Positions 182 to 11,066 of a stretch of 11,414 nt of DNA are shown here, in pieces. Below the pieces are notes generated by a model. That model was not told the origin of the DNA and did not search any database. It was given only the letters and a program-made list of their open reading frames with translations. Every line of letters begins with the position of its first letter. The first letter of the stretch is position 1. A program made the translations under genes and the position numbers. Source of the DNA: JAWOFN01 sp046497505 [NCBI: bacterium] (GTDB lineage: Bacteria > Blakebacterota > Blakebacteria > Blakebacterales); contig JAWOFN010000013.1 of assembly GCA_046497505.1 (NCBI GenBank), forward strand, positions 1 through 11,414, given 5' to 3'.

Positions 182-1084
182 TCAGGGTCGGAGCAGCCCG
201 TGGACCGTCCGGGCGATCCGGGCCCCTACGGCCGCGGACTCGTCGGGGTCCTCGAATCCCCCGGTGAGGACCACGAGCACATAAGGTGGAGCATCGGGCG
301 GATAGACGATGGCCGCGTCGTGGTGGATCCGGGTGATCATCCCCGTCTTGTGGGCGACCTTCACATCCTCCGGCAGCCCCGCCGGGATCATGTCGTTGAA
401 GCGCTGGTCCAGCAGGATCTCCACCATCTCCCCGTCCGCCTCCTGGCTCACCGCAGCCCCCTTCATGAGGGCCTCCAGCTGCAGTGCCAGGTCGGAAGAG
501 GTGGCCTGGTTGTTCAGTCCCGCCCGGTAGGCCGGGATGTCCTCCACCCCCCGCAGCACCTTCATCTGCTGGTTCCCCAGGCGGTCGATGAGGGCCTGGG
601 CCGAGTCGGCCGTGACGTGCTGGATGAGCAGGTTGGTGGCCAGGTTCGAGGAGACCGTGATCATCTGGTAGACCAGGTCCCGGATCGACATCCGGGTGCC
701 CAGGCGGCTGTAGATGACATCGTCCGAGTCGTCCTCGATGGCGTACTCCGAGCCGTCCAGGATGGAGGTGAAGCGGTTCTCCACCACCAGCGAGTCAGAG
801 AGGGAGAGGGTCCCTTCCTCGGCCTGCTGGAAGACGGCCATCATCACGGCGACTTTCATCGTACTGGCGGCGTGGAAGCGCGTGGCTCCCTTCAAGTCAA
901 GGAAGGCCATGTGCTCGGGGTCCCGGACCGAGACCGCGATCTCCTGCTGCGGGTGTTCGAGGACGATCTCCATCACCGCCCGGCGCAGGTCCTCGTGGCC
1001 GGGCTGGGCTCCGGCGCTGGCGGGGAGAAGGACCAGACAGAGGATCGCAATGCTGGGGGCGCTCACGGTACAGTGCCTGAACAC
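182..1084 (-). CDS. Exported class A beta-lactamase-like serine hydrolase
   Basis: Predicted 300-residue exported serine hydrolase of the penicillin-recognising fold (beta-lactamase class A-like, Beta-lactamase2 family). The GTG at 1084 is chosen because AGGAGG at 1098-1093 sits 8 nt before it. This start gives a clean signal peptide (residues 1 to about 26, ending ASAGA-Q); an upstream ATG at 1135 would place 17 charged residues before it. Catalytic motifs: S74-T-M-K77 (SxxK), S145-S-N147 (the SDN element) and K246-T-G248. The omega-loop segment is AYRAGLN, so the general-base glutamate that class A enzymes have four residues before this Asn is an Arg here. True beta-lactam hydrolysis by the class A mechanism is therefore doubtful. 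A periplasmic hydrolase or penicillin-binding role is more likely. It is transcribed divergently from the S9 peptidase gene. Confidence 0.85.
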   Translation of the reverse strand: MFRHCTVSAPSIAILCLVLLPASAGAQPGHEDLRRAVMEIVLEHPQQEIAVSVRDPEHMAFLDLKGATRFHAASTMKVAVMMAVFQQAEEGTLSLSDSLVVENRFTSILDGSEYAIEDDSDDVIYSRLGTRMSIRDLVYQMITVSSNLATNLLIQHVTADSAQALIDRLGNQQMKVLRGVEDIPAYRAGLNNQATSSDLALQLEALMKGAAVSQEADGEMVEILLDQRFNDMIPAGLPEDVKVAHKTGMITRIHHDAAIVYPPDAPPYVLVVLTGGFEDPDESAAVGARIARTVHGLLRP

Positions 1085-1092
1085 GTCGACTA

Positions 1093-1098
1093 CCTCCT
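1093..1098 (-). promoter_or_regulatory. Ribosome binding site that fixes the GTG start at 1084
   Basis: On the minus strand AGGAGG is followed by an 8-nt spacer and GTG. It is a perfect anti-16S match and argues against the longer in-frame ATG start at 1135. Confidence 0.8.
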
Positions 1099-1182
1099 GG
1101 CGGGGTGTTGTCCGGCGGATCCTGGACCCTCTCACGCCACCTTACCCTGCGGCCCCTGAGGGGGGAAGGACCGCACCCTGGA

Positions 1183-1212
1183 TTGGATGGACGCACGGCG
1201 ACAGGCTAGACT
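1183..1212 (+). promoter_or_regulatory. Putative sigma70 promoter of the S9 peptidase operon
   Basis: TTGGAT (1183-1188) and TAGACT (1207-1212) are separated by 18 nt. Transcription would start near 1219, giving a leader of about 24 nt that carries AGGAGG at 1231-1236 and the GTG start at 1243. Both hexamers deviate from consensus, so this is a plausible site rather than a certain one. Confidence 0.4.
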
Positions 1213-1242
1213 CCTCACGTCCCGATCCGAAGGAGGCCCTCC

Positions 1243-3540
1243 GTGAAGCCGTCCCGCATCGTCCCGTTACTCCTGCTCGTCTCATGTTCCCTCGCCGCTT
1301 TCCCGGCCGAGCTCCAGGCCCAGGGTACCCGGGCGGACTACGAGCGGGCCGATCGGCTGCCGCGCGAGGCCCGTGCGTCGGTCTACCACATCATCGAGAC
1401 CCGGGAGTGGATCGGCGAGAGCCACCGGTTGTGGTACCGCATCCAGACGCGGGAGGGGAAGCAGTTCATGCTGGCGGATGCCGACCTGAGGACCCGCCAG
1501 GCGGCCTTCGACCACGCCCGGCTGGCCGAGGCCCTGAGCGAGGCCACGGGAGATACCATCGAGGCGGCCGACCTGCCTTTCGACCGGATCGAGTTCCTGG
1601 ACGAGGGCGACCGCATCCGGTTCGCCGTGGAGGGGTGGCGGTGGGTCTGCGACCTGCAGGACTATGCGCTGGAACGCACCGAGCGGGTGCCCGAGCGGGA
1701 CCGGGGCCGGCGGTCGGATCGGATCCCGCCCGAGGAGCGGCGGTACACCGCCCCGGATTCCTCCATGGAGGCGTTCATCCGGGATCACGACATCTGGCTG
1801 CAGCCCCTCTCGCGGGCCGAGGATGAGGAGCCGGCGGAGGCCTACCCCCTCAGCATCGACGGCGGGGCGGGGGCTCCCTACGTCTCGGTGCACTGGTCCC
1901 CCGACTCGAGCCGCCTGGCGGGGGTGCTGGAGGAGCCTGGGTACGAGCACATCATCCACTACGTGGAATCCTCCCCCGATGACCAGCTCCAGCCGAAGCA
2001 CCACACCCGGGAGTACACGAAGCCGGGGGACGCGCTGCCGCAGCGGAAGGTCCGGCTGTTCGACGTCAGGACACGGGAGATGACCCCCGTCGATGATGCG
2101 CTCTTCACGAACCAGTACGCCCTGAACCGGCTTTCCTGGCGGGAGGACGGTCGGGCCTTCACCTTCGAGTTCAACCAGCGGGGGCACCAGGTCTACCGCA
2201 TCATCGAGGTGGACGGGCAGACCGGACAGGTCCGGGCCCTCATCGAGGAGACCAGCCCCACCGTCATCGACTACAGCCAGAAGCGCTACCGCCGCGACCT
2301 GGACGATGGCCGGGAGATCCTCTGGGCCTCGGAGCGGGACGGCTGGAACCACCTCTACCTCATCGACGGCGTCACCGGCCGGGTGAAGCGGCAGATCACC
2401 CGGGGGGAGTGGGTGGTCCGGGATGTGGTGCACGTGGACGAGGAAGCGCGGCAGGTCACCTTCCGGGCCTCGGGGCGCGAGCCAGGTGACCCCTACTTCC
2501 TGCACCTCTACCGGGTAGGCTTCGACGGGCGCGGCCTGTTGCGTCTGACCGAGGGGGCGGGCACGCATTCCACCGACTTCTCCGAGGACCGGGCCTACTT
2601 CGTGGACACCTGGTCGCAGGTGGACACACCCCCCGTCTCGGTCCTCCGGCGTGCCTCGGACGGCCAGGTCGTCCTCGAACTGGAGCAGGGGGACATCACC
2701 GACCTCATCGAGATGGGATGGAAGGCCCCCGAGCCCTTCGTCGCGAAGGGCCGGGACGGGGTCACCGACATCTGGGGGGTGATCATGCGGCCCACCGGGT
2801 TCGATCCCTCCCGCTCCTGGCCGGTACTGGAGTACATCTACGCCGGTCCCCACAGTTCCTTCGTCCCCAAGTCGTTCCGCCCCTTCCACGGCATGCAGGC
2901 CATGGCCGAGCTGGGCTTCGTGGTGGTCCAGGTGGACGGGATGGGCACCAACAACCGGGGGAAGGCCTTCCACGACGTGGCCTGGCGCAACCTGAAGGAT
3001 GCCGGGTTGCCCGACCACATCCTCTGGCACCGGGCGGCGGCCGAGCGCTACCCCTGGTACGATATCGACCGGGGGGTGGGGATCTACGGCACCTCGGCCG
3101 GCGGGCAGAGCTCGATGGGGGCGCTGCTCTTCCACCCCGGGTTCTACGCCGCGGCGGTCTCCTCCTGCGGCTGCCATGACAACCGCATGGACAAGATCTG
3201 GTGGAACGAGCAGTGGATGGGCTGGCCCATAGGACCGTGGTACGGGGAGTCCTCCAACGTGGACAACGCCTGGCGCCTGCAGGGGGACCTGCTCCTTATT
3301 GTGGGGGAGATGGATACGAACGTGGACCCGGCCTCCACCATGCAGGTGGTGGATGCCCTGGTCGAGGCGGACAAGGACTTCGACCTGCTCGTGCTGCCCG
3401 GGGCGGGCCACACCAGCGGCGGCTCCTACGGGGAGCGCAGGCGCCGGGACTTCTTCGTCCGGCACATCCTGGGCATCGAGCCGCCCGACTGGAACGCGGA
3501 CGAAGCGGAACCGGCGGTGGGGCGGGGGCCGGGCGCCTGA
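1243..3540 (+). CDS. Secreted S9 family dipeptidyl-peptidase-like serine protease
   Basis: Predicted 765-residue exported prolyl-oligopeptidase-clan enzyme (family S9, DPP IV-like) that would cleave peptides in the periplasm or outside the cell. The GTG start has AGGAGG at 1231-1236, 6 nt upstream. Residues 1-27 form a signal peptide ending LQA-QG; L12-V-S-C15 also resembles a lipobox, so lipid anchoring is possible. Residues about 90-500 form the N-terminal propeller region, with a HWSPDSSRLAG strand and the REYTKPGDALPQ stretch typical of bacterial DPP4. The hydrolase domain starts around YAGP (533-536). The triad is visible: Ser618 in GTSAGG, Asp691 in GEMDTNVD and His723 in GAGHTSG; the spacing matches the family. 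Length is normal. The serine hydrolase gene follows after 26 bp, probably co-transcribed. Confidence 0.93.
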   Translation: MKPSRIVPLLLLVSCSLAAFPAELQAQGTRADYERADRLPREARASVYHIIETREWIGESHRLWYRIQTREGKQFMLADADLRTRQAAFDHARLAEALSEATGDTIEAADLPFDRIEFLDEGDRIRFAVEGWRWVCDLQDYALERTERVPERDRGRRSDRIPPEERRYTAPDSSMEAFIRDHDIWLQPLSRAEDEEPAEAYPLSIDGGAGAPYVSVHWSPDSSRLAGVLEEPGYEHIIHYVESSPDDQLQPKHHTREYTKPGDALPQRKVRLFDVRTREMTPVDDALFTNQYALNRLSWREDGRAFTFEFNQRGHQVYRIIEVDGQTGQVRALIEETSPTVIDYSQKRYRRDLDDGREILWASERDGWNHLYLIDGVTGRVKRQITRGEWVVRDVVHVDEEARQVTFRASGREPGDPYFLHLYRVGFDGRGLLRLTEGAGTHSTDFSEDRAYFVDTWSQVDTPPVSVLRRASDGQVVLELEQGDITDLIEMGWKAPEPFVAKGRDGVTDIWGVIMRPTGFDPSRSWPVLEYIYAGPHSSFVPKSFRPFHGMQAMAELGFVVVQVDGMGTNNRGKAFHDVAWRNLKDAGLPDHILWHRAAAERYPWYDIDRGVGIYGTSAGGQSSMGALLFHPGFYAAAVSSCGCHDNRMDKIWWNEQWMGWPIGPWYGESSNVDNAWRLQGDLLLIVGEMDTNVDPASTMQVVDALVEADKDFDLLVLPGAGHTSGGSYGERRRRDFFVRHILGIEPPDWNADEAEPAVGRGPGA

Positions 3541-3566
3541 ACGACGGATACGGGCAGGAGGGGCCG

Positions 3567-4697
3567 ATGCTCTCAGAGGAACGATTGGGTCGGATGGTGC
3601 GGGGTCTGGCCGCCGGGAGGGGTGTACGTCATGCCGTCCTCGCCATCGGTCGGGAGGACGGCTCGCCGATCTGGATAGGGACGGCCGGTTCGGCAGACGA
3701 CGCGGACATGCCCCTGACGGCGGACACGCCGTATTTCCTGGCGAGCGTGACGAAGCTGTACATCGCCACGGCGATCCTGCGGCTGGTGGAGCAGGACCGG
3801 GTCGCCCTGGACGCGCCCATGGCGGACTACCTTCCGGCCGATCTGGTCGCGGGGCTCCACGTACAGAAGGGGACGGACCGGACGGGCGAGATCACGGTGC
3901 GGCACCTGCTGGGCCACGCCTCGGGGCTGCCCGAGTACCTGGCGATCCGGCCGCCGGGCGGAACGTCGATCTTCGAGTCGGTGGGATCGGAAGGGGACTC
4001 GGAGTGGGGGATCGAGGAGATCACACGGCTGGTCCGTGAACACGGGCAGGCGCAGTTCCCACCCCGACCCTTCGACGGCCGGCGCCACACCATCAAGTAC
4101 TCGGACACCAACTTCCAGCTCCTCATCGCCATCATCCGGACCGTGACGGAGAAGTCGCTGCAGGACGCGTTCGATGAACTGATCCTCAGCCGTCTGGGCC
4201 TCGAACAGACGTTCCTTCCCGGCACGCCGGCCGCGGAGGCGGCCTCACCGGCGCCGGCGGCGACGTGGTCGGGCGATGAGCGGCTGGATACGCTCCCCGG
4301 TGCCATGCGCTCGTTCAACGACCTGTTCAGTACGGCCGGCGACTCACTCCGGTTCATGGCCGCGCTGGTGAGCGGCGAGGCGTTCGACGACCCGTCGACG
4401 GCGGATCTCATGACAGCGCACTGGAACCCCCTGGCCTTCTCGCTGAGCCTGAGACCCCTTGGTCCGGGATGGCCCATGGAGTACGGACTCGGGACGATCC
4501 GTTTCCGCCTGCCCCGGCTGTTCACGCCGTTCCGGCCGGTGCCGGAAGTCGTGGGTCACACGGGCGTCACCGGCTCGTGGCTCTTCCATTGCCCCGACCT
4601 CGAGATCATCACCGCCGGGACCGTGGACCAGGCCACAGCGGCGGCGGTGCCGTACCGGTTCGTTCCGCGCCTGCTCCGAGCACTCCAGGAGGCGTGA
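3567..4697 (+). CDS. Serine hydrolase, beta-lactamase class C / esterase-like
   Basis: Predicted 376-residue member of the beta-lactamase-related serine hydrolase family (PF00144-like), which includes D-aminopeptidases, esterases and carboxypeptidases. The ATG at 3567 is preceded by AGGAGG (3556-3561) with a 5-nt spacer; the open frame extends further upstream but only as an out-of-frame overlap with the S9 gene. Motifs: S60-V-T-K63 (nucleophile and Lys), Y178-S-D-T-N182 (the Tyr motif) and H331-T-G333 in place of KTG, all usual for this family. No signal peptide or lipobox is seen, so it is probably cytoplasmic, unlike its two exported neighbours. It lies 26 bp behind the S9 peptidase in an apparent operon, consistent with a role in peptide turnover. 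The substrate cannot be deduced. Confidence 0.9.
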   Translation: MLSEERLGRMVRGLAAGRGVRHAVLAIGREDGSPIWIGTAGSADDADMPLTADTPYFLASVTKLYIATAILRLVEQDRVALDAPMADYLPADLVAGLHVQKGTDRTGEITVRHLLGHASGLPEYLAIRPPGGTSIFESVGSEGDSEWGIEEITRLVREHGQAQFPPRPFDGRRHTIKYSDTNFQLLIAIIRTVTEKSLQDAFDELILSRLGLEQTFLPGTPAAEAASPAPAATWSGDERLDTLPGAMRSFNDLFSTAGDSLRFMAALVSGEAFDDPSTADLMTAHWNPLAFSLSLRPLGPGWPMEYGLGTIRFRLPRLFTPFRPVPEVVGHTGVTGSWLFHCPDLEIITAGTVDQATAAAVPYRFVPRLLRALQEA

Positions 4698-5247: not shown

Positions 5248-5275
5248 CCGGCTCTCGATACCGGGGAGGTTCCAG

Positions 5276-5803
5276 ATGACCAGCCCAGACCTCAGACAGC
5301 GGCGATCGGCCCTGCTGCTGTCCGCAGTCCTCCTGCTGTCCGTCCCCCTGGCCTGCTCGGCCCAGGAGGGCACCTCGGTGGGAGATATCGCCCCCGAGAT
5401 CGTCGGGGAAGATGTGGATGGCAACCCGATGAAGCTGAGCGACTACCGCGGCAAGGTGGTGATGATCGACTTCTGGGGCGACTGGTGAGGCCCCTGCCGG
5501 GCCATGTACCCGCACGAGCGGTCGCTCGTGGAAAAGTACCCGGACCGATTCATCATCGTGGGCATCAACAGCGACAGGTCACGTGAGAAGCTCCGTGAGG
5601 TGATGAAGGAGAACGACATCACCTGGCCCTCCTTCTACGACGGAGGCAGCACCAGGGGGCCGATCTCCAGAGCGTGGGGTATCTCTTACTGGCCCACGAT
5701 CTTCCTGCTGGATGCTGAGGGGGTCATCCGGTACAAGGACATCCGCGGCGAGAAGCTTGAGAAGGCCATCGAGGAGCTGCTGGCGGAGATGCCGCCGGCC
5801 TAG
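5276..5803 (+). CDS. Exported TlpA/thioredoxin-like selenoprotein (U-G-P-C active site)
   Basis: Read through the TGA at 5486-5488, this is a 175-residue thiol-disulfide oxidoreductase of the TlpA/AhpC-TSA thioredoxin fold. ATG 5276 follows GGGGAGG (5263-5269) with a 6-nt spacer. Residues 1-29 are a signal peptide (RQRR, then a long hydrophobic run, ending ACSA-Q); Cys27 makes lipidation a weaker option. Mature features: VGDIAPEI near the N-terminus, VVMIDFWGDW ahead of the active site, residue 71 = TGA, then G72-P73-C74. The cis-Pro loop is Y138-W-P140-T, followed by the FLLDAEGVI strand. Family members read W-C-x-x-C here, so the TGA replaces exactly the nucleophilic cysteine. The frame is intact on both sides with no other lesion, and a SECIS-like hairpin follows. 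The likely role is periplasmic reduction of disulfides or oxidised substrates. A TGC/TGT-to-TGA nonsense mutation is the alternative. Confidence 0.85.
5486..5488 (+). other. Selenocysteine codon (UGA) at the thioredoxin nucleophile position
   Basis: TGA lies in frame between TGG (Trp70) and GGC CCC TGC (Gly-Pro-Cys). Selenocysteine insertion at the first position of CxxC is an established pattern in thioredoxin-fold selenoproteins. TGA terminates other genes in this window (for example at 1-114, 182-1084, 1243-3540 and 3567-4697), so a general reassignment of TGA to Trp is excluded. Confidence 0.8.
5513..5530 (+). promoter_or_regulatory. Bacterial SECIS hairpin
   Basis: CACGAGC (5513-5519) and GCTCGTG (5524-5530) form a perfect 7-bp stem closing the tetraloop GGTC (5520-5523). 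The loop starts 31 nt after the TGA, inside the roughly 16-37 nt range accepted for bacterial SECIS elements, and has G in its first two positions. The GGUC loop matches that of the SelB-binding mini-helix of E. coli fdhF. A second small hairpin (GGCCC 5489-5493 with GGGCC 5499-5503) lies right after the TGA but has a CTGCC loop and fits less well. Confidence 0.75.
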
Positions 5804-7290
5804 ATCGCCAGCCGGGCAGCCTGCACGTCCCAGGTGTCCACCATGAAGCCGTCCCGGTCGATCAGCAGCAGGTCCCAACCGTCTCGGACAGGCACAACGG
5901 TCACAGTGCGGGCATCACGCCAGGGATCCTCCAGGGAGGGGGCTTTGTCTGTCACGATCTCGAGGTCCAGCCTCGTCTCCTCGGCCTGGCACATCATGGT
6001 GATGAGCGTCGGTTCGTCATGGTGGCACCAGGGAGCCGGGATCCACTTGTCCAGAAAACCCCACCGCACCCGTACGTGGCCGTGGAGACGACCGTATTCA
6101 TAGAGGGCATGGAGCGAGCACACATCCGCTTCCAGGTGCCGGAAGAGGGCTTCTTCGCGGCCTGAGCGAAGCAGCTCCTCCAGCTCGTCCGGCTCACTCA
6201 GGGGACGGTCGATCCCGCAGGAGCCCTGGACCAGGAGGGTGGGGGTGAGTCTGAGTGCGCGTCCCTGGCGGTTGAGCTGGATCGACTTCTGGGGCGGTTC
6301 GAGTTCGTGGAGCCGGCGGGTGCCGTGCGGGATGCCCAGCCCCCGCAGCATGCCGCGGATGCCCAGGCCCCCGAGGATCTCGAACGCGTCCAGCCGGGCC
6401 GCGAGCTCCTTGATCCCATCGCCCCGGAGACGGGTGATCCGACGACGGTTCACATCCAGGAGGACCGCGGCCTCCGGGGCCCCGGCGGGCACGCCGTGCA
6501 GGAGCACCCGGCGCATCCGGGCGAGTTCCTCCGCGTGGGCGAGCCGCTCCTCACGTTCCCGCCCCCAGATCGCGGCGTAGGTCTGCGGGTGGATGTAGTA
6601 ATAGGGACCCGGATTGAGCATCTCGATCCGTTGCCGGATCGCTGCCCGTGCGGACCGTACGGCGTCGTGGGATCGGTCGAGGATCCACGCCCCGTCCTCC
6701 CGGACCTGGATCGGGGCATCCCGCCGCCAGTACTTCGCCGTATCCTCCCGGAGCCGGCTGGCCAAACAGTTCTCATCCAGATACGCGAGGACGTCCGAGG
6801 GCGTCATGGCACCGCCGTGCGCGTCCAGGACGCAGATCGCAGTACGCAGGGCCGACCAGCTCTTCGGGATGTTGGCCCGCCACGCACTCTTGAGGAACTG
6901 GGGCGTGAGGGGCACCTCCGGCGAGGGGAGAGGACCCAGGATGTCGGGCATCTGCGGGATCGGTGAGGGTTCCGGGGGACGCAGACCCATCCGGGAGACC
7001 CACTGGTCCGCCTCGTGATCGTGGGGATCCAGGGCGTAGAGATCGCCGTCCCGGTAGACGGGGGGCCTCCCGGGCCTGCACTTCTTCAGCGAGGCCAGGG
7101 CATCCCGGGCCGATGCGATGCCCGCCTCATGCAGGCGGTCGGCGGCCTCCTCCAGGGTGAGGGGGCGGCCCTTCTCCAGCAGGCAGGCGATGAGCAGGCC
7201 GTACCAGTTCGCCTCGGCGCTCTCGGCCGCCTTCTCCACGACGGGGACCTCGATCCCCAGGACCTCGCAGTAGGGGTTGTTCGTGCTCAT
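5800..7290 (-). CDS. Uncharacterised 496-residue protein with two winged-helix-like segments
   Basis: I do not recognise this family. The ATG at 7290 has AGGAG (7303-7299) 8 nt upstream. The sequence is soluble, with no signal peptide or membrane segment. Residues about 28-92 (NWYGLLIACLLEKGRPLTLE, then a basic KKCRPGRPPVYRDGDLYALDP wing) look like a winged helix. A second similar unit lies at about 143-208 (SWSALRTAICVLDAHGGAMTPSDVL onward, ending in a DGAWILD wing). The middle (about 225-330) is rich in Arg, Glu and Leu and may be helical. The C-terminal third (about 340-496) is mixed alpha/beta with a CHHDEP motif and no familiar catalytic signature. DNA binding is a structural guess. Its TAG stop overlaps the TAG of the convergent selenoprotein gene by two bases. 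Confidence 0.8.
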   Translation of the reverse strand: MSTNNPYCEVLGIEVPVVEKAAESAEANWYGLLIACLLEKGRPLTLEEAADRLHEAGIASARDALASLKKCRPGRPPVYRDGDLYALDPHDHEADQWVSRMGLRPPEPSPIPQMPDILGPLPSPEVPLTPQFLKSAWRANIPKSWSALRTAICVLDAHGGAMTPSDVLAYLDENCLASRLREDTAKYWRRDAPIQVREDGAWILDRSHDAVRSARAAIRQRIEMLNPGPYYYIHPQTYAAIWGREREERLAHAEELARMRRVLLHGVPAGAPEAAVLLDVNRRRITRLRGDGIKELAARLDAFEILGGLGIRGMLRGLGIPHGTRRLHELEPPQKSIQLNRQGRALRLTPTLLVQGSCGIDRPLSEPDELEELLRSGREEALFRHLEADVCSLHALYEYGRLHGHVRVRWGFLDKWIPAPWCHHDEPTLITMMCQAEETRLDLEIVTDKAPSLEDPWRDARTVTVVPVRDGWDLLLIDRDGFMVDTWDVQAARLAI

Positions 7291-7552: not shown

Positions 7553-7945
7553 ATGGCGGGTACGACGCTGACGACACGCCTGCCGGAATGGCTGGAGGAG
7601 GAGATTCGCGAGGAGTTCGAACAGCGTGGCGAAGGCCCTTCTGAGGGGCTGCGTCGCGTTGTGCAGGAGTGGTGGATCCTCACGCGCCTGACGCTCATCG
7701 AAATCCGCGAGGGTGTCACCGGCCCCCGCCCAGCCCTCAAAGGGGGGCCCGAGGTCTGGGAGGTCATCCTTGTTCGCAGGTGGTATGAGAATGATCCGAA
7801 GGGCCTCAGGGACTACTTCGGCGGGTTGACTGAAGAACAGCTCCGACAGGCCCTGGCGTGCTACGAACTGTTCCCAGAGCCGGTTGACGAGCATCTGCGT
7901 GAGATCGATCGTCTTAATGAACTCCATGAGGCAGGTCTCCTCTGA
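7553..7945 (+). CDS. DUF433-like antitoxin
   Basis: Predicted 130-residue antitoxin of the DUF433 (VapB-like) type. ATG 7553 is preceded by GGAGGG (7544-7549). The N-terminal half (MAGTTLTTRLPEWLEEEIRE...) resembles a ribbon-helix-helix DNA-binding start followed by a helix. The C-terminal half carries the DUF433 pattern: GPEVWEVILVRRWYENDP, then LRDYFGGLTEEQLRQALACY and ELFPEPVDEHL, i.e. a strand, an initial helix and a Y-x-x-LT-x-x-x-hxxAL helix. DUF433 proteins are commonly encoded just before DUF5615 toxins, as here. The stop overlaps the next start by one base (TGATG), implying translational coupling. It would neutralise the toxin and repress its own promoter. A diverged copy of its end appears at 8451-8504. 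Confidence 0.8.
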   Translation: MAGTTLTTRLPEWLEEEIREEFEQRGEGPSEGLRRVVQEWWILTRLTLIEIREGVTGPRPALKGGPEVWEVILVRRWYENDPKGLRDYFGGLTEEQLRQALACYELFPEPVDEHLREIDRLNELHEAGLL

Positions 7946-8415
7946 TGGCTGGTCCCGTCCGCCTGATGATCGACGAGAACATCCCGCTCGTTATCGCACA
8001 GGCTCTCAGAGACAATGGGATCGATGCCCTTCATGTAGAGGAGGCAGATCTCAAGGGCGAAGAGGATGTCCTGATTCTGCGCGTTGCAGCGATTCAACGC
8101 CGCATCGTCGTGACGCGGGATGTGAAGGACTATATCCGTCTGGCAGGACTATTTCGGGACACCGGACATGACCTGGAAGGGATTCTCCTTGTGGGGCACC
8201 GTATCCCGGCCGCCCCGCCGCGCATTCTCATCCAAGCCCTCCTGGAATGGACCCTCGCCGTTCAGGAGGAGCCTGATCGGCCGGGGTACGCGGTGCAATG
8301 GCTCCCATCTCCTTCGGCAGGCCCGAAGAGCGAGGGAAGGGTGCGAGAACGACCTCCACGTTATAGGCGTGCTCGGGAACGGATCAGTTCAGAGATTTCC
8401 TTTGAAGTGGCTTGA
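7945..8415 (+). CDS. DUF5615 PIN-like toxin (first copy)
   Basis: Predicted 156-residue PIN-like ribonuclease-fold protein of the DUF5615 (Mut7-C-related) family. The core runs RLMIDENIP (Asp10-Glu11-Asn12), EEDVLIL (Asp41), then VVTRDVKDY (Asp59, Asp62). This arrangement of acidic residues fits a metal-binding nuclease site. Residues about 110-156 form an extra tail rich in Arg and Pro that the second copy shares in part (P-x-Y-x-R-A-x-E-R). ATG overlaps the antitoxin TGA by one base; GAGGCAGG inside the antitoxin end supplies a binding site. It presumably acts as the toxin of the module by RNA cleavage, known for PIN toxins in general but not demonstrated for this one. Confidence 0.83.
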   Translation: MAGPVRLMIDENIPLVIAQALRDNGIDALHVEEADLKGEEDVLILRVAAIQRRIVVTRDVKDYIRLAGLFRDTGHDLEGILLVGHRIPAAPPRILIQALLEWTLAVQEEPDRPGYAVQWLPSPSAGPKSEGRVRERPPRYRRARERISSEISFEVA

Positions 8416-9047: not shown

Positions 9048-9083
9048 TTGCAGTTACTTGCCAATAGTGGTATATTGGTGCCA
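9048..9083 (+). promoter_or_regulatory. Sigma70-type promoter giving a leaderless abiEi mRNA
   Basis: TTGCAG (9048-9053), a 17-nt spacer and TATATT (9071-9076) make a good promoter. The ATG at 9083 lies 7 bases after the -10 box, which is where transcription should start, and no Shine-Dalgarno sequence precedes it. A leaderless transcript is therefore implied. Confidence 0.6.
9061..9078. promoter_or_regulatory. Inverted repeat operator over the abiEi -10 box
   Basis: CCAATA (9061-9066) and TATTGG (9073-9078) form a 6-bp inverted repeat with a 6-nt spacer that covers the -10 element. AbiEi-type antitoxins are known to repress their own promoters by binding inverted repeats upstream of abiEi, so this is a natural operator candidate. 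Confidence 0.5.
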
Positions 9084-9724
9084 TGAGGTTCGAGGATGTC
9101 GTCGCTACCGTTGTCGACCTGCCCTGCTTCACCGGGAGTCTGCTGCTTGCAGGCGATCGGGACCCGGGGGATGTGCGCCGGCAGCTCTCACGGTGGAAGG
9201 ACGCGGGGAAGGTCATCCAGCTCCGCCGGAACCTCTACGTACTGGCCGAGCCGTGGCGCAAGATCCGCCCTCATCCCTTCCTGCTCGCCAATGCGATCCA
9301 GAGCCCCTCGTATGTGAGTCTGCAGTCCGCGCTCGATCACCACGGGCTGATCCCCGAGGCGGTACCGGTCACCACGTCGGTGACGACGGCGCGCCCGACG
9401 ACATACGATACGCCCCTGGGACGCTTCACCTACCGGCACGTGCGTGAGGAGGTTTTCTTCGGCTACCGGACCGAACGGGTCCAACAGGACCAGCAGGCGT
9501 TCGTCGCCGATGCGGCCAAGGCACTGCTCGACCTCGTCTACCTGACGCCCGGCGGCGATGACCCGGAGTACCTGGCCTCACTCCGGCTTAAGGACCTGGA
9601 GCCCGGCCACAGGGAAGACCTCAAGGCATACGCCCGCAGGTGGGACAAGCCGAAGATCCACCGGGCGGTCGAGCGGATCCTGGATCTGCAGGGTGAAGTG
9701 CCTGGTAGGAGGGATCGCCCATGA
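9083..9724 (+). CDS. abiEi: AbiEi-type antitoxin (type IV toxin-antitoxin)
   Basis: Predicted 213-residue AbiEi-family antitoxin/transcriptional regulator. An N-terminal winged helix is visible at about 1-52: DPGDVRRQLSRWKDAGKV followed by IQLRRNLYVLAEP, the wing that matches the usual 'G.i.rlrrGlYvl' pattern. The segment PHPFLLANAIQSPSYVSLQSALDHHGLIPE (about 69-98) is the family's conserved core, followed by the antitoxin domain with FGYRTERVQQDQQAFVADAAKALLDLVYL. In type IV systems the antitoxin counteracts the toxin's effect without stable binding and represses the operon. Its stop overlaps the toxin start by ATGA, typical of coupled abiE genes. The start lacks a ribosome binding site and appears leaderless. 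Confidence 0.85.
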   Translation: MRFEDVVATVVDLPCFTGSLLLAGDRDPGDVRRQLSRWKDAGKVIQLRRNLYVLAEPWRKIRPHPFLLANAIQSPSYVSLQSALDHHGLIPEAVPVTTSVTTARPTTYDTPLGRFTYRHVREEVFFGYRTERVQQDQQAFVADAAKALLDLVYLTPGGDDPEYLASLRLKDLEPGHREDLKAYARRWDKPKIHRAVERILDLQGEVPGRRDRP

Positions 9725-10536
9725 AGGAGCGACTGCTCGAACTGATCCGGGCCGCCGACAGCCCGGTCCACGGCCGCAACCTTGCCCGCGAGTACCTCCA
9801 GGCCCGCATCCTGGCGGCCATGCAGGATGCGGGGGCCATGATCCCTCTGGCCTTCCAGGGGGGTACCGCCCTCCGCTTCCTGTACGACCTGCCGAGGTTC
9901 TCCGAGGACCTGGACTTCGCCCTGGAGCGGCCCGAACGCGGCGACTACGACTTCCAGAAGATGAGCGACCGGGCGCTCGCCCGACTGCGGCGAGAAGGGT
10001 ACGAAGTGAGTGAGCAGATCCGGACCGACGGGGTGGTCGAGTGCCTCATGGTCCGCTTCCACGACCTGCTCCATGAGGGCGACCTCCCGCCCCGCGTCAC
10101 CGAACGACTCCGGATTCGCGTGGAGGTCGATACACGTCCTCCCGAAGGAGCCGTCCTGGCGACCACAGTCGTCCGTCGGCATGTCCTGCTCAACCTGCAG
10201 CATCACGATCGTGCCTCCCTGCTGGCCGGGAAGCTGCACGCCGTCCTCCAGCGGACCTGGACCAGGGGGAGGGACCTGTTCGACCTCTTCTGGTACCTCA
10301 GCGACCGGCGGTGGCCCGGTCCCAACCTGACGCTGCTCAACAACGTCCTGACGCAGACCGGTTGGGAGGGCCCGGACCTCCAAGAATCCACCTGGCGTGG
10401 AGTGGTCGAGGAGAAGGTCGGCGCATTGGACTGGGATACGGCCCGAGCGGATGTCGAGCCCTTCCTGGAGCCCGGTCCCCACACCGATCTGTTCACCAGG
10501 GAGCATCTGCTGGGGTTGCTGGCGTCGGCTGGATAG
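9721..10536 (+). CDS. abiEii: AbiEii-type nucleotidyltransferase toxin
   Basis: Predicted 271-residue AbiEii-family nucleotidyltransferase, the toxin of the pair. Motif I is G47-G48-T49-A-L-R52 and motif II S61-E-D63-L-D65-F, the metal-binding aspartates of the polymerase-beta fold. The family's later motifs appear as LAGKLHAVLQR (Lys171) and RGRDLFDLFWYL (Arg184, Asp185, Asp188). All expected catalytic residues are present and the length is within the usual range. Related toxins (AbiEii, MenT) transfer nucleotides, in studied cases to tRNA acceptor ends, and confer abortive infection or growth arrest; the substrate here is unknown. It starts inside the antitoxin stop (ATGA). The 221 bp after it show no clear gene or terminator. 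Confidence 0.88.
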   Translation: MKERLLELIRAADSPVHGRNLAREYLQARILAAMQDAGAMIPLAFQGGTALRFLYDLPRFSEDLDFALERPERGDYDFQKMSDRALARLRREGYEVSEQIRTDGVVECLMVRFHDLLHEGDLPPRVTERLRIRVEVDTRPPEGAVLATTVVRRHVLLNLQHHDRASLLAGKLHAVLQRTWTRGRDLFDLFWYLSDRRWPGPNLTLLNNVLTQTGWEGPDLQESTWRGVVEEKVGALDWDTARADVEPFLEPGPHTDLFTREHLLGLLASAG

Positions 10537-10757
10537 CTTGAGATCCGATCCTGCCACCAGCATCAGAGGTTGCAGCGTGAAAAGGTCGATGTGATGCCAG
10601 CACTTGAGCACCTGACAGCAGATGGGTACTCTCGGAGGTTGTAGAGACTCAAGCGAAGAGGGAAGCACTACTCCGTTCGGTGGGAGGGTAGGCCTGCAGA
10701 GGTTCTCCCCTGTGAACGGTGGCAGGCCAGGAACGATGTTGGAGGGAGCGCCCAAGG

Positions 10758-11066
10758 ATGATCCCGCTATTGGAGAAGAAGCGTCCCGCCATCGAGCGGC
10801 TCTGCCGTCGCTATCATGTAGACACCCTGTATGTCTTCGGATCAGCAGCCACGGGGGAATTCGATTCAGACGAAAGCGACCTGGATTTTCTGGTGGAATT
10901 CGAGCGGACTGAGGAGATGAAGCTCGCGGACCAGTACTTCGGACTCCTTGAGGAGCTTCGAGAACTGTTCAACAGGGACGTCGACCTGCTTACACCGCGC
11001 TCACTTCGCAATCCGTATTTCACGGCTGAGGTTAACAGGACGCGCGAGGCGGTCTATGCAGCTTGA
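10758..11066 (+). CDS. MNT-type minimal nucleotidyltransferase
   Basis: Predicted 102-residue minimal nucleotidyltransferase (MNT/MntA-like, NTP_transf_2). The ATG at 10758 is preferred because GGAGGGA (10741-10747) precedes it by 10 nt and MIPLLEKKRPAIERL is the normal family beginning; an in-frame ATG at 10719 would add 13 atypical residues. Motif: G28-S29, then D41-x-D43 in SDLDFLVEF, with the third acidic residue in NRDVDLLTP (Asp74/Asp76). It ends REAVYAA, typical of the family. MNT proteins usually act as antitoxins that AMPylate a neighbouring HEPN ribonuclease. No HEPN gene is seen on either side: a 25-residue frame (11056-11133) overlaps the end but has no HEPN motif. It is either an orphan or the partner has been lost. 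Confidence 0.83.
   Translation: MIPLLEKKRPAIERLCRRYHVDTLYVFGSAATGEFDSDESDLDFLVEFERTEEMKLADQYFGLLEELRELFNRDVDLLTPRSLRNPYFTAEVNRTREAVYAA

What the first reader, a model, noticed from the sequence alone, without database searches (positions are those of the whole stretch)
5276..5803. Exported TlpA-like selenoprotein with a W-U-G-P-C active site
Seen: the frame 5276-5803 is intact except for one TGA at 5486-5488, and that TGA is exactly at the nucleophilic cysteine of the thioredoxin CxxC motif (W-[TGA]-G-P-C). Standard annotation would split it into a 70-residue truncated ORF and a 99-residue ORF starting at Met77. Known: UxxC thioredoxin-fold selenoproteins exist. Inferred: this is one, secreted, in which selenium replaces the attacking sulfur.
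Basis: partly seen in the sequence, partly recalled or inferred. Interest (0 to 1): 0.9.

Follow-up and report, generated by a model that had tools for sequence, protein, structure and literature searches.

The report
Exported thioredoxin-like selenoprotein with coding SECIS
This bacterial gene almost certainly uses one TGA "stop" codon to insert selenocysteine into the active site of an exported thioredoxin-like enzyme, as many relatives in Planctomycetota appear to do; the kind of protein is known, but the size and regularity of this family were not found described.

Summary
Frame 5276-5803 is open except for one TGA (codon 71), at the first Cys of the thioredoxin CxxC motif (W-U-G-P-C). It is not decay: 6 of 6 close relatives from a scan of 84,980 species have TGA there, as do 68 of 80 copies examined base by base, window included, the other 12 having TGC/TGT. 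The 86 best-scoring places listed in 392 Planctomycetota genomes all contain an in-frame TGA. Downstream is a SECIS-type hairpin (7 bp, GGUC loop 31 nt after the TGA) spelled by the codons of H-E-R-S-L-V. It occurs in 57 of 68 TGA copies and 0 of 12 Cys copies, with nearly fixed synonymous codons. A strong selA match is present in 78 of 82 genomes with listed TGA copies. Best explanation: an exported ResA/TlpA-like thiol-disulfide reductase with Sec71-Cys74 as redox pair. UxxC TlpA-like selenoproteins are known, so this is a new member of a known kind. I found no description of the planctomycete expansion with its near-invariant coding SECIS, or of its double-Sec (UxxU) branch. The window's own genome is not held: its Sec machinery is untested and its phylum unproven.

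The parts
5263..5269 (+). Shine-Dalgarno-like GGGGAGG upstream of the start codon
   Evidence: read in the sequence; inference
5276..5803 (+). TlpA/ResA-like selenoprotein gene, 175 residues with Sec71, stop TAG
   Evidence: homologs
5276..5362 (+). N-terminal export signal (n-region RQRR, hydrophobic stretch, possible cleavage after CSA, residues 1-29)
   Evidence: read by eye in the sequence; residues 1-31 have pLDDT < 50; export not tested
5378..5797 (+). thioredoxin-fold domain, about residues 35-174
   Evidence: Pfam AhpC-TSA 35-153; AlphaFold model pTM 0.73 and Foldseek hits to ResA
5483..5497 (+). active site W-U-G-P-C (Trp70, Sec71, Gly72, Pro73, Cys74)
5486..5488 (+). in-frame TGA, read as selenocysteine
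   Evidence: TGA in 68 of 80 copies, the other 12 being TGC/TGT
5513..5530 (+). SECIS-type hairpin CACGAGC-GGTC-GCTCGTG, codons 80-85 (H-E-R-S-L-V); 31 bases lie between the TGA and the loop 5520-5523

Best explanation
The gene encodes an exported thioredoxin-fold oxidoreductase of the TlpA/ResA type. SelB carrying Sec-tRNA reads codon 71 (UGA) as selenocysteine, directed by the hairpin just downstream. After export, Sec71 is the nucleophile that attacks a substrate disulfide, and Cys74 resolves the intermediate, leaving an internal Se-S bond that an unidentified membrane electron donor re-reduces. Shown here: the conserved UGA, the hairpin with codon constraint and some covariation, the predicted fold, and Sec genes in relatives' genomes. 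Inferred: actual Sec insertion in this organism, export, the reducing direction, the substrate and the electron donor.
For: TGA at the same codon in 6/6 close relatives and in 68/80 copies examined; an in-frame TGA in each of the 86 best-scoring listed places of 392 Planctomycetota genomes (codon position checked only in those fetched). Hairpin with GGUC loop and 6-7 bp stem in 57/68 TGA copies and 0/12 Cys copies (Fisher p about 2e-8, not corrected for relatedness or for my choice of copies). Codons of that hairpin are nearly frozen: CGG 57/57 for Arg82, TCG 57/57 for Ser83, CTC 54/54 where residue 84 is Leu, against a joint expectation of 0.0066 for GAG-CGG-TCG-CTC from codon use in the same domains. 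Stem 96.0% of cells paired; 3 of 7 pairs have changes on both sides (5 cells); sliding the partner gives 15-43%. selA: strong match in 78 of 82 genomes with listed TGA copies against about 161 of the other 310 (my hand count; p about 9e-15, uncorrected). selB over cut-off in 13/14 genomes (control: 2 of 14); tRNA-Sec over cut-off in 4/6 (control 5 of 14) and 6/8 (control 2 of 14 at E <= 1e-10). selA and tRNA-Sec lie about 1.2 kb apart in G219, G169 and G107. ResA-type structures are the top fold matches.
Against: The window's own genome is not held, so its selA/selB/selC/selD are unseen. Four of 82 genomes with listed TGA copies show no selA match (G156, G179, G218, G270) and the selA match of G332 contains two in-frame stops; incomplete or faulty assemblies are a possible reason, not tested. 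tRNA-Sec is missing in G036 and G156 and below cut-off in G001 and G003; selB is below cut-off in G003. Eleven of 68 TGA copies lack the GGUC hairpin. The outermost hairpin pair is unpaired in 15 of 54 distinct sequences, and covariation rests on 5 cells. The fold of the window stretch alone is only mildly more stable than shuffles, z -1.74, 11 of 200 shuffles as good. No Rfam family reaches its gathering score in the window. 58 of 68 TGA copies have 200 or more residues from the first in-frame ATG to Sec, whereas this one has 70.
Confidence: 0.93

Rival explanations
1. A nonsense mutation or sequencing error has turned a Cys codon (TGC/TGT) into TGA, in a decaying or wrongly read gene.
For: One base change would be enough; 12 of 80 homologs examined do have a Cys codon there.
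Against: The same TGA recurs in 6/6 close relatives and in dozens of genomes; the GGUC hairpin follows it only in TGA copies; GC3 and protein similarity continue after the TGA.
Confidence: 0.02
2. UGA is read through by some other amino acid (Trp, Cys or near-cognate suppression) rather than Sec.
For: The window's own Sec machinery is unseen, and four genomes with listed TGA copies lack a detected selA.
Against: 8 of 11 window ORFs checked end in TGA; the TGA sits at the redox Cys and swaps with Cys codons; the hairpin and the selA association point to SelB-dependent decoding.
Confidence: 0.04
3. It is a real Sec protein but works as an oxidase, isomerase or peroxidase rather than a disulfide reductase.
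For: Pfam AhpC-TSA and Redoxin are the top matches, and these families are recalled to include peroxidases; function was not tested.
Against: It has a CxxC-type UGPC motif, as in thioredoxin, and the best solved matches are ResA, TlpA and DsbE-type thiol-disulfide oxidoreductases; G-P between the redox residues is recalled as typical of reducing thioredoxins.
Confidence: 0.25

Closest known systems
UxxC selenoproteins of the TlpA-like (cd02966) / Trx-like 1 (COG0526) / Prx-like (PF00578, PF08534) families (review PMC13188914 table; GOS survey PMC2398784; Sargasso survey PMC1088965; passages seen)
   Same: thioredoxin fold, UxxC motif with Sec at the first position, bacterial SECIS just downstream of UGA
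   Different: the main texts of these papers do not contain 'planctomycet' (0 occurrences each); the fixed H-E-R-S-L-V/GGUC cassette is not mentioned in the passages I saw; homology to their reference sequences was not tested
ResA, thiol-disulfide oxidoreductase (PDB 4nmu, 1st9)
   Same: fold (TM-score by target length about 0.80), CxxC redox domain of similar length
   Different: ResA has Cys where this has Sec; position 77 here is Met (ResA Glu80 is recalled as the equivalent); the NCBIfam ResA model scores 90.7 against a cut-off of 170
NCBIfam NF041054, ResA-like WAxxUGC motif protein
   Same: by its name, a selenoprotein family with a ResA-like domain
   Different: UGC motif rather than UxxC; 37.8 bits against a cut-off of 300
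Prx-like thiol:disulfide oxidoreductase with UxxC or UxxU (PMC13188914 table, passage)
   Same: precedent for double-Sec UxxU, as in four relatives found here
   Different: reference sequence not available here, so relationship untested

Membership tests
Bacterial selenoproteins | in-frame UGA at a redox position, conserved in homologs and replaced by Cys in others | tested here: met
   68 TGA and 12 TGC/TGT of 80 copies examined
Bacterial selenoproteins | SECIS hairpin immediately downstream with a small apical loop containing G | tested here: met
   GGUC loop on a 7-bp stem, 31 nt between UGA and loop; feature as stated in PMC1088965
Bacterial selenoproteins | selA, selB, selC, selD in the same genome | not testable with these tools
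   no genome held for the window; in relatives selA, selB and tRNA-Sec found in most genomes searched; selD not searched
Bacterial selenoproteins | selenium in the mature protein | not testable with these tools
   needs 75Se labelling or mass spectrometry
TlpA/ResA-like thioredoxin-fold family | thioredoxin fold with AhpC-TSA/Redoxin-type profile match | tested here: met
   PF00578 71.1 bits against cut-off 26; ResA top in Foldseek
TlpA/ResA-like thioredoxin-fold family | CxxC redox motif (here UxxC) | tested here: met
   W-U-G-P-C; Cys74 in 57 of 57 HERS-type copies
TlpA/ResA-like thioredoxin-fold family | export or membrane anchoring | tested here: inconclusive
   signal-like N terminus read by eye; no signal predictor or experiment available
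ResA subfamily (NF002854) | curated score cut-off of 170 bits | tested here: not met
   90.7 bits
WAxxUGC ResA-like selenoprotein (NF041054) | curated cut-off of 300 bits and UGC motif | tested here: not met
   37.8 bits, motif is UGPC

The most novel reading that the evidence does not exclude
The window gene belongs to an undescribed, phylum-scale family of exported thioredoxin-fold selenoproteins, multiplied up to several copies per genome. Its coding SECIS dictates an almost invariant peptide (H-E-R-S-L-V) that is absent where Sec is replaced by Cys, and a branch of it has Sec in place of both redox cysteines (UxxU), served by a single SECIS.
Probability: 0.6. Interest if true: 0.6.

Novelty: new member of a known kind. 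Interest (0 to 1): 0.45.

Why it matters
Ordinary gene calling splits these genes at the TGA, so a multicopy family of planctomycete redox enzymes is probably missing or truncated in databases (inference). Because the SECIS lies inside conserved protein sequence and is absent from the Cys copies examined, the family is a natural test of how a coding RNA signal constrains a protein, and of why an exported reductase would pay for selenium. The UxxU branch would allow a direct test of double-Sec insertion from one SECIS.

Tried and rejected
Own-genome search for Sec machinery failed because no genome is held. Rfam found nothing in the window at gathering thresholds. In-frame TGAs reported in some DPP4 (S9 peptidase) homologs looked like possible further Sec sites; in the one such locus looked at, L092, the tblastn-aligned core has no stop, so I dropped that idea without checking the others. 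The second TGA counted in L042 is its terminal stop. Of 53 matches to the SECIS 14-mer in 20 genomes, 46 lie in TlpA places listed and 7 do not: six are in frames that do not resemble the family and look like chance (reversed-pattern control: 5 matches), the seventh is a UxxU family member. Placing the window by its DPP4 gene was inconclusive: 47 of 392 planctomycete genomes match at E <= 1e-170, with 49-60% identity; a class search around G169 covered only 29 genomes and gave nothing closer. Viral contigs gave no match. The plasmid search matched 1,312 records, none covering 80% of the query; the best is a 49.6%-identity TlpA of Planctomyces sp. SH-PL62 annotated as one uninterrupted gene; I did not read its active-site codon. 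Paper searches pairing selenoprotein/selenocysteine terms with Planctomycetes, Planctomycetota, Pirellul, Gemmatimonad, TlpA or metagenome terms gave no description of this family in the listings and passages I saw; most subscription papers and all supplements are outside what I could read, including Table S9 of PMC4807772, which lists planctomycete selenoprotein candidates.

Full report
The observation. The frame 5276-5803 contains a single internal stop, TGA at 5486-5488, and reads M...FWGDW-U-GPCRAMYPHERSLVEK... to TAG at 5801-5803. Standard ORF listing splits it into 70 and 99 residues. A GGGGAGG motif sits about 6 bases before ATG5276. The read-through protein matches AhpC-TSA, Redoxin, Thioredoxin_8 and Thioredoxin profiles across the TGA, and third-codon GC is similar on both sides, 0.87 and 0.89. 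Eight of 11 window ORFs checked end in TGA, so TGA normally terminates here.

Conservation of the TGA. A scan of one genome for each of 84,980 species, with exact peptide patterns from the window protein, returned seven loci. Six are planctomycete relatives at 45-57% identity and all six have TGA at the same codon; the seventh is a distant thioredoxin (Persicitalea) with Cys, matched over 50 residues. A broader search in 392 Planctomycetota genomes found matches in 277 at E <= 1e-15; the 86 best-scoring listed places all carry an in-frame TGA, and the first listed place without a stop is number 87 (my count; the listing is truncated, and the codon position was checked only in copies that I fetched). 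I examined 80 copies base by base, window included: 68 TGA, 10 TGC, 2 TGT. The Cys and the divergent copies were chosen on purpose from the listing, so 68:12 is not a population frequency.

The SECIS. After the TGA comes a hairpin CACGAGC-GGTC-GCTCGTG (5513-5530), exactly the six codons H80-E-R-S-L-V85; 31 bases separate TGA and loop. It is predicted in the fold of the window stretch (z only -1.74, 11 of 200 shuffles as good). A GGTC loop on a 6-7 bp stem at that place occurs in 57 of 68 TGA copies and 0 of 12 Cys copies. Arg82 is CGG in 57/57, Ser83 is TCG in 57/57 and Leu84 is CTC in 54/54 (three copies have Phe), whereas nearby conserved residues vary in codon, for example Leu54 uses six codons and Pro73 four. 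The joint expectation for the four codons GAG-CGG-TCG-CTC from the same domains is 0.0066, observed 54/54. Pair counting on 54 distinct sequences: 96.0% of cells paired, three of seven pairs with changes on both sides (five cells), slid controls 15-43%; the outermost pair is unpaired in 15 of 54. Compensatory changes are seen in L026 (CAT/ATG) and in L070 and L071 (GAAC/GTTC). Since 54 of the 57 copies share one 12-mer, covariation rests on few events; codon constraint is the stronger argument. Eleven TGA copies lack this hairpin and show other predicted structures.

Genome-wide check of the cassette. The pattern TGA-N27-GARCGGTCGYTC gave 130 matches in 82 of 392 genomes (matches by my count); 111 read U-x-x-C, 4 read U-x-x-U and 15 fit neither. 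The reversed-pattern control gave 14, so the 15 are what chance gives. In 20 genomes the 14-mer without the TGA requirement gave 53 matches, 47 of them in the family. At this spacing, then, the cassette marks this family; I saw no sign that other planctomycete selenoproteins share it, but other spacings were tested only in those 20 genomes.

Machinery. No genome is held for the window. In the six named relatives' genomes selA is over cut-off in 5 and partial in the sixth; tRNA-Sec is over cut-off in 4 of 6, with 5 of 14 control genomes also over it. Across the 392 genomes selA is over cut-off in 239. Of 82 genomes with a listed TGA copy, 78 have a strong selA match (E <= 1e-70; that of G332 has two in-frame stops) and four have none (G156, G179, G218, G270). 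This is a hand count; against it stand about 161 of the remaining 310 (239 over cut-off minus 78; one or two of the 78 may lie under the curated cut-off, and some of the 310 may hold unlisted TGA copies). Fisher p is about 9e-15, uncorrected for relatedness. selB is over cut-off in 13 of 14 genomes tested, control 2 of 14; tRNA-Sec in 6 of 8 more genomes at E <= 1e-10, control 2 of 14. In G219, G169 and G107 tRNA-Sec lies about 1.2 kb from selA. selD was not searched.

Fold and function. AlphaFold with a 7-sequence alignment gives mean pLDDT 77.9, pTM 0.73, with residues 1-31 unreliable and the active-site stretch modest (71-80: 66). Foldseek ranks ResA structures first; in the sequence search the first hit is a Bacteroides-type thiol-disulfide oxidoreductase (2lrn), followed by ResA. 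No NCBIfam model reaches its cut-off. Position 77 is Met in 56 of 68 TGA copies, this one included; Glu in 4 of 68 TGA and 4 of 12 Cys copies; recalled, ResA has a functional Glu there. I infer a reducing thioredoxin-type cycle with Sec71 attacking and Cys74 resolving. Partner and electron donor are unknown: the nearest upstream gene with a Pfam match on the same strand ends 578 bases before the start, and the downstream ORF lies on the other strand, so no operon partner suggests itself.

Architecture and placement. 58 of 68 TGA copies have 200 or more residues from the first in-frame ATG to Sec. In the seven longer relatives scanned no Pfam family other than thioredoxin-fold ones reaches its cut-off before the Sec domain; two (L001, L006) carry SHD1 after it. 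The window protein has only 70 residues before Sec; 7 of 68 TGA copies have 120 or fewer, some of them cut by the end of the stretch or tandem. In a 79-row tree the window falls in a group of 17 rows, all TGA, with support 90/81, below the starred level. This suggests a planctomycete origin, but only that phylum was searched deeply, and the DPP4 gene's best planctomycete matches are 49-60% identical. The phylum is therefore not settled.

Comparison with what is known. UxxC TlpA-like, Trx-like and Prx-like selenoproteins are listed in a 2026 review (PMC13188914; passages) and in marine surveys (PMC2398784 and PMC1088965; passages). Sec use in planctomycetes is described in PMC4807772 (passages), whose candidate table I could not read. 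The main texts of PMC5029168 and PMC12013277 (passages) do not contain 'planctomycet'. PMC1242214 (passages) names a Pirellula peroxiredoxin as the homolog of a Geobacter candidate. I found no description of this expansion in the searches listed. The kind is known; the family scale, the fixed cassette and the UxxU branch may be new.

Noticed in passing
L112 (G312:C32), L113 (G070:C54), L114 (G326:C678), L115 (G115:C37): Four relatives have TGA at both redox positions (U-[LR]-[TS]-U-[RK]-A-x-W-P) followed by the same SECIS cassette, with otherwise open frames (L112 is cut at its contig start); selA is strong in all four genomes.
   Followed up: partly
L062, L063, L067, L069, L072, L073, L074, L076, L084, L087: Eleven TGA copies in these ten loci lack the GGUC hairpin and fold differently downstream of the TGA, so a second SECIS type may exist in the family.
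   Followed up: partly
L050 (G289:C1): A 53%-identical homolog with TGC and without HERSLV, in a genome without a selA match: a possible natural Sec-to-Cys replacement.
   Followed up: no
L001 and L006: These two copies carry SHD1 (SLA1 homology domain 1) after the selenoprotein domain, a fusion of unknown meaning.
   Followed up: no
window 9083-11066: An AbiEii gene (over its Pfam cut-off), an AbiEi-like gene and an MntA-antitoxin-like gene (both below their NCBIfam cut-offs) suggest a toxin-antitoxin/defence island; DUF5615/PIN-like gene at 7945-8415.
   Followed up: no
window 5800-7290, minus strand: A 496-aa ORF with GC3 0.86 and no Pfam or NCBIfam match, whose stop overlaps the selenoprotein's stop.
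   Followed up: no
window 182-4697: Class A beta-lactamase-like gene, DPP4-like S9 peptidase and a second serine beta-lactamase-type hydrolase side by side; all three end in TGA.
   Followed up: no
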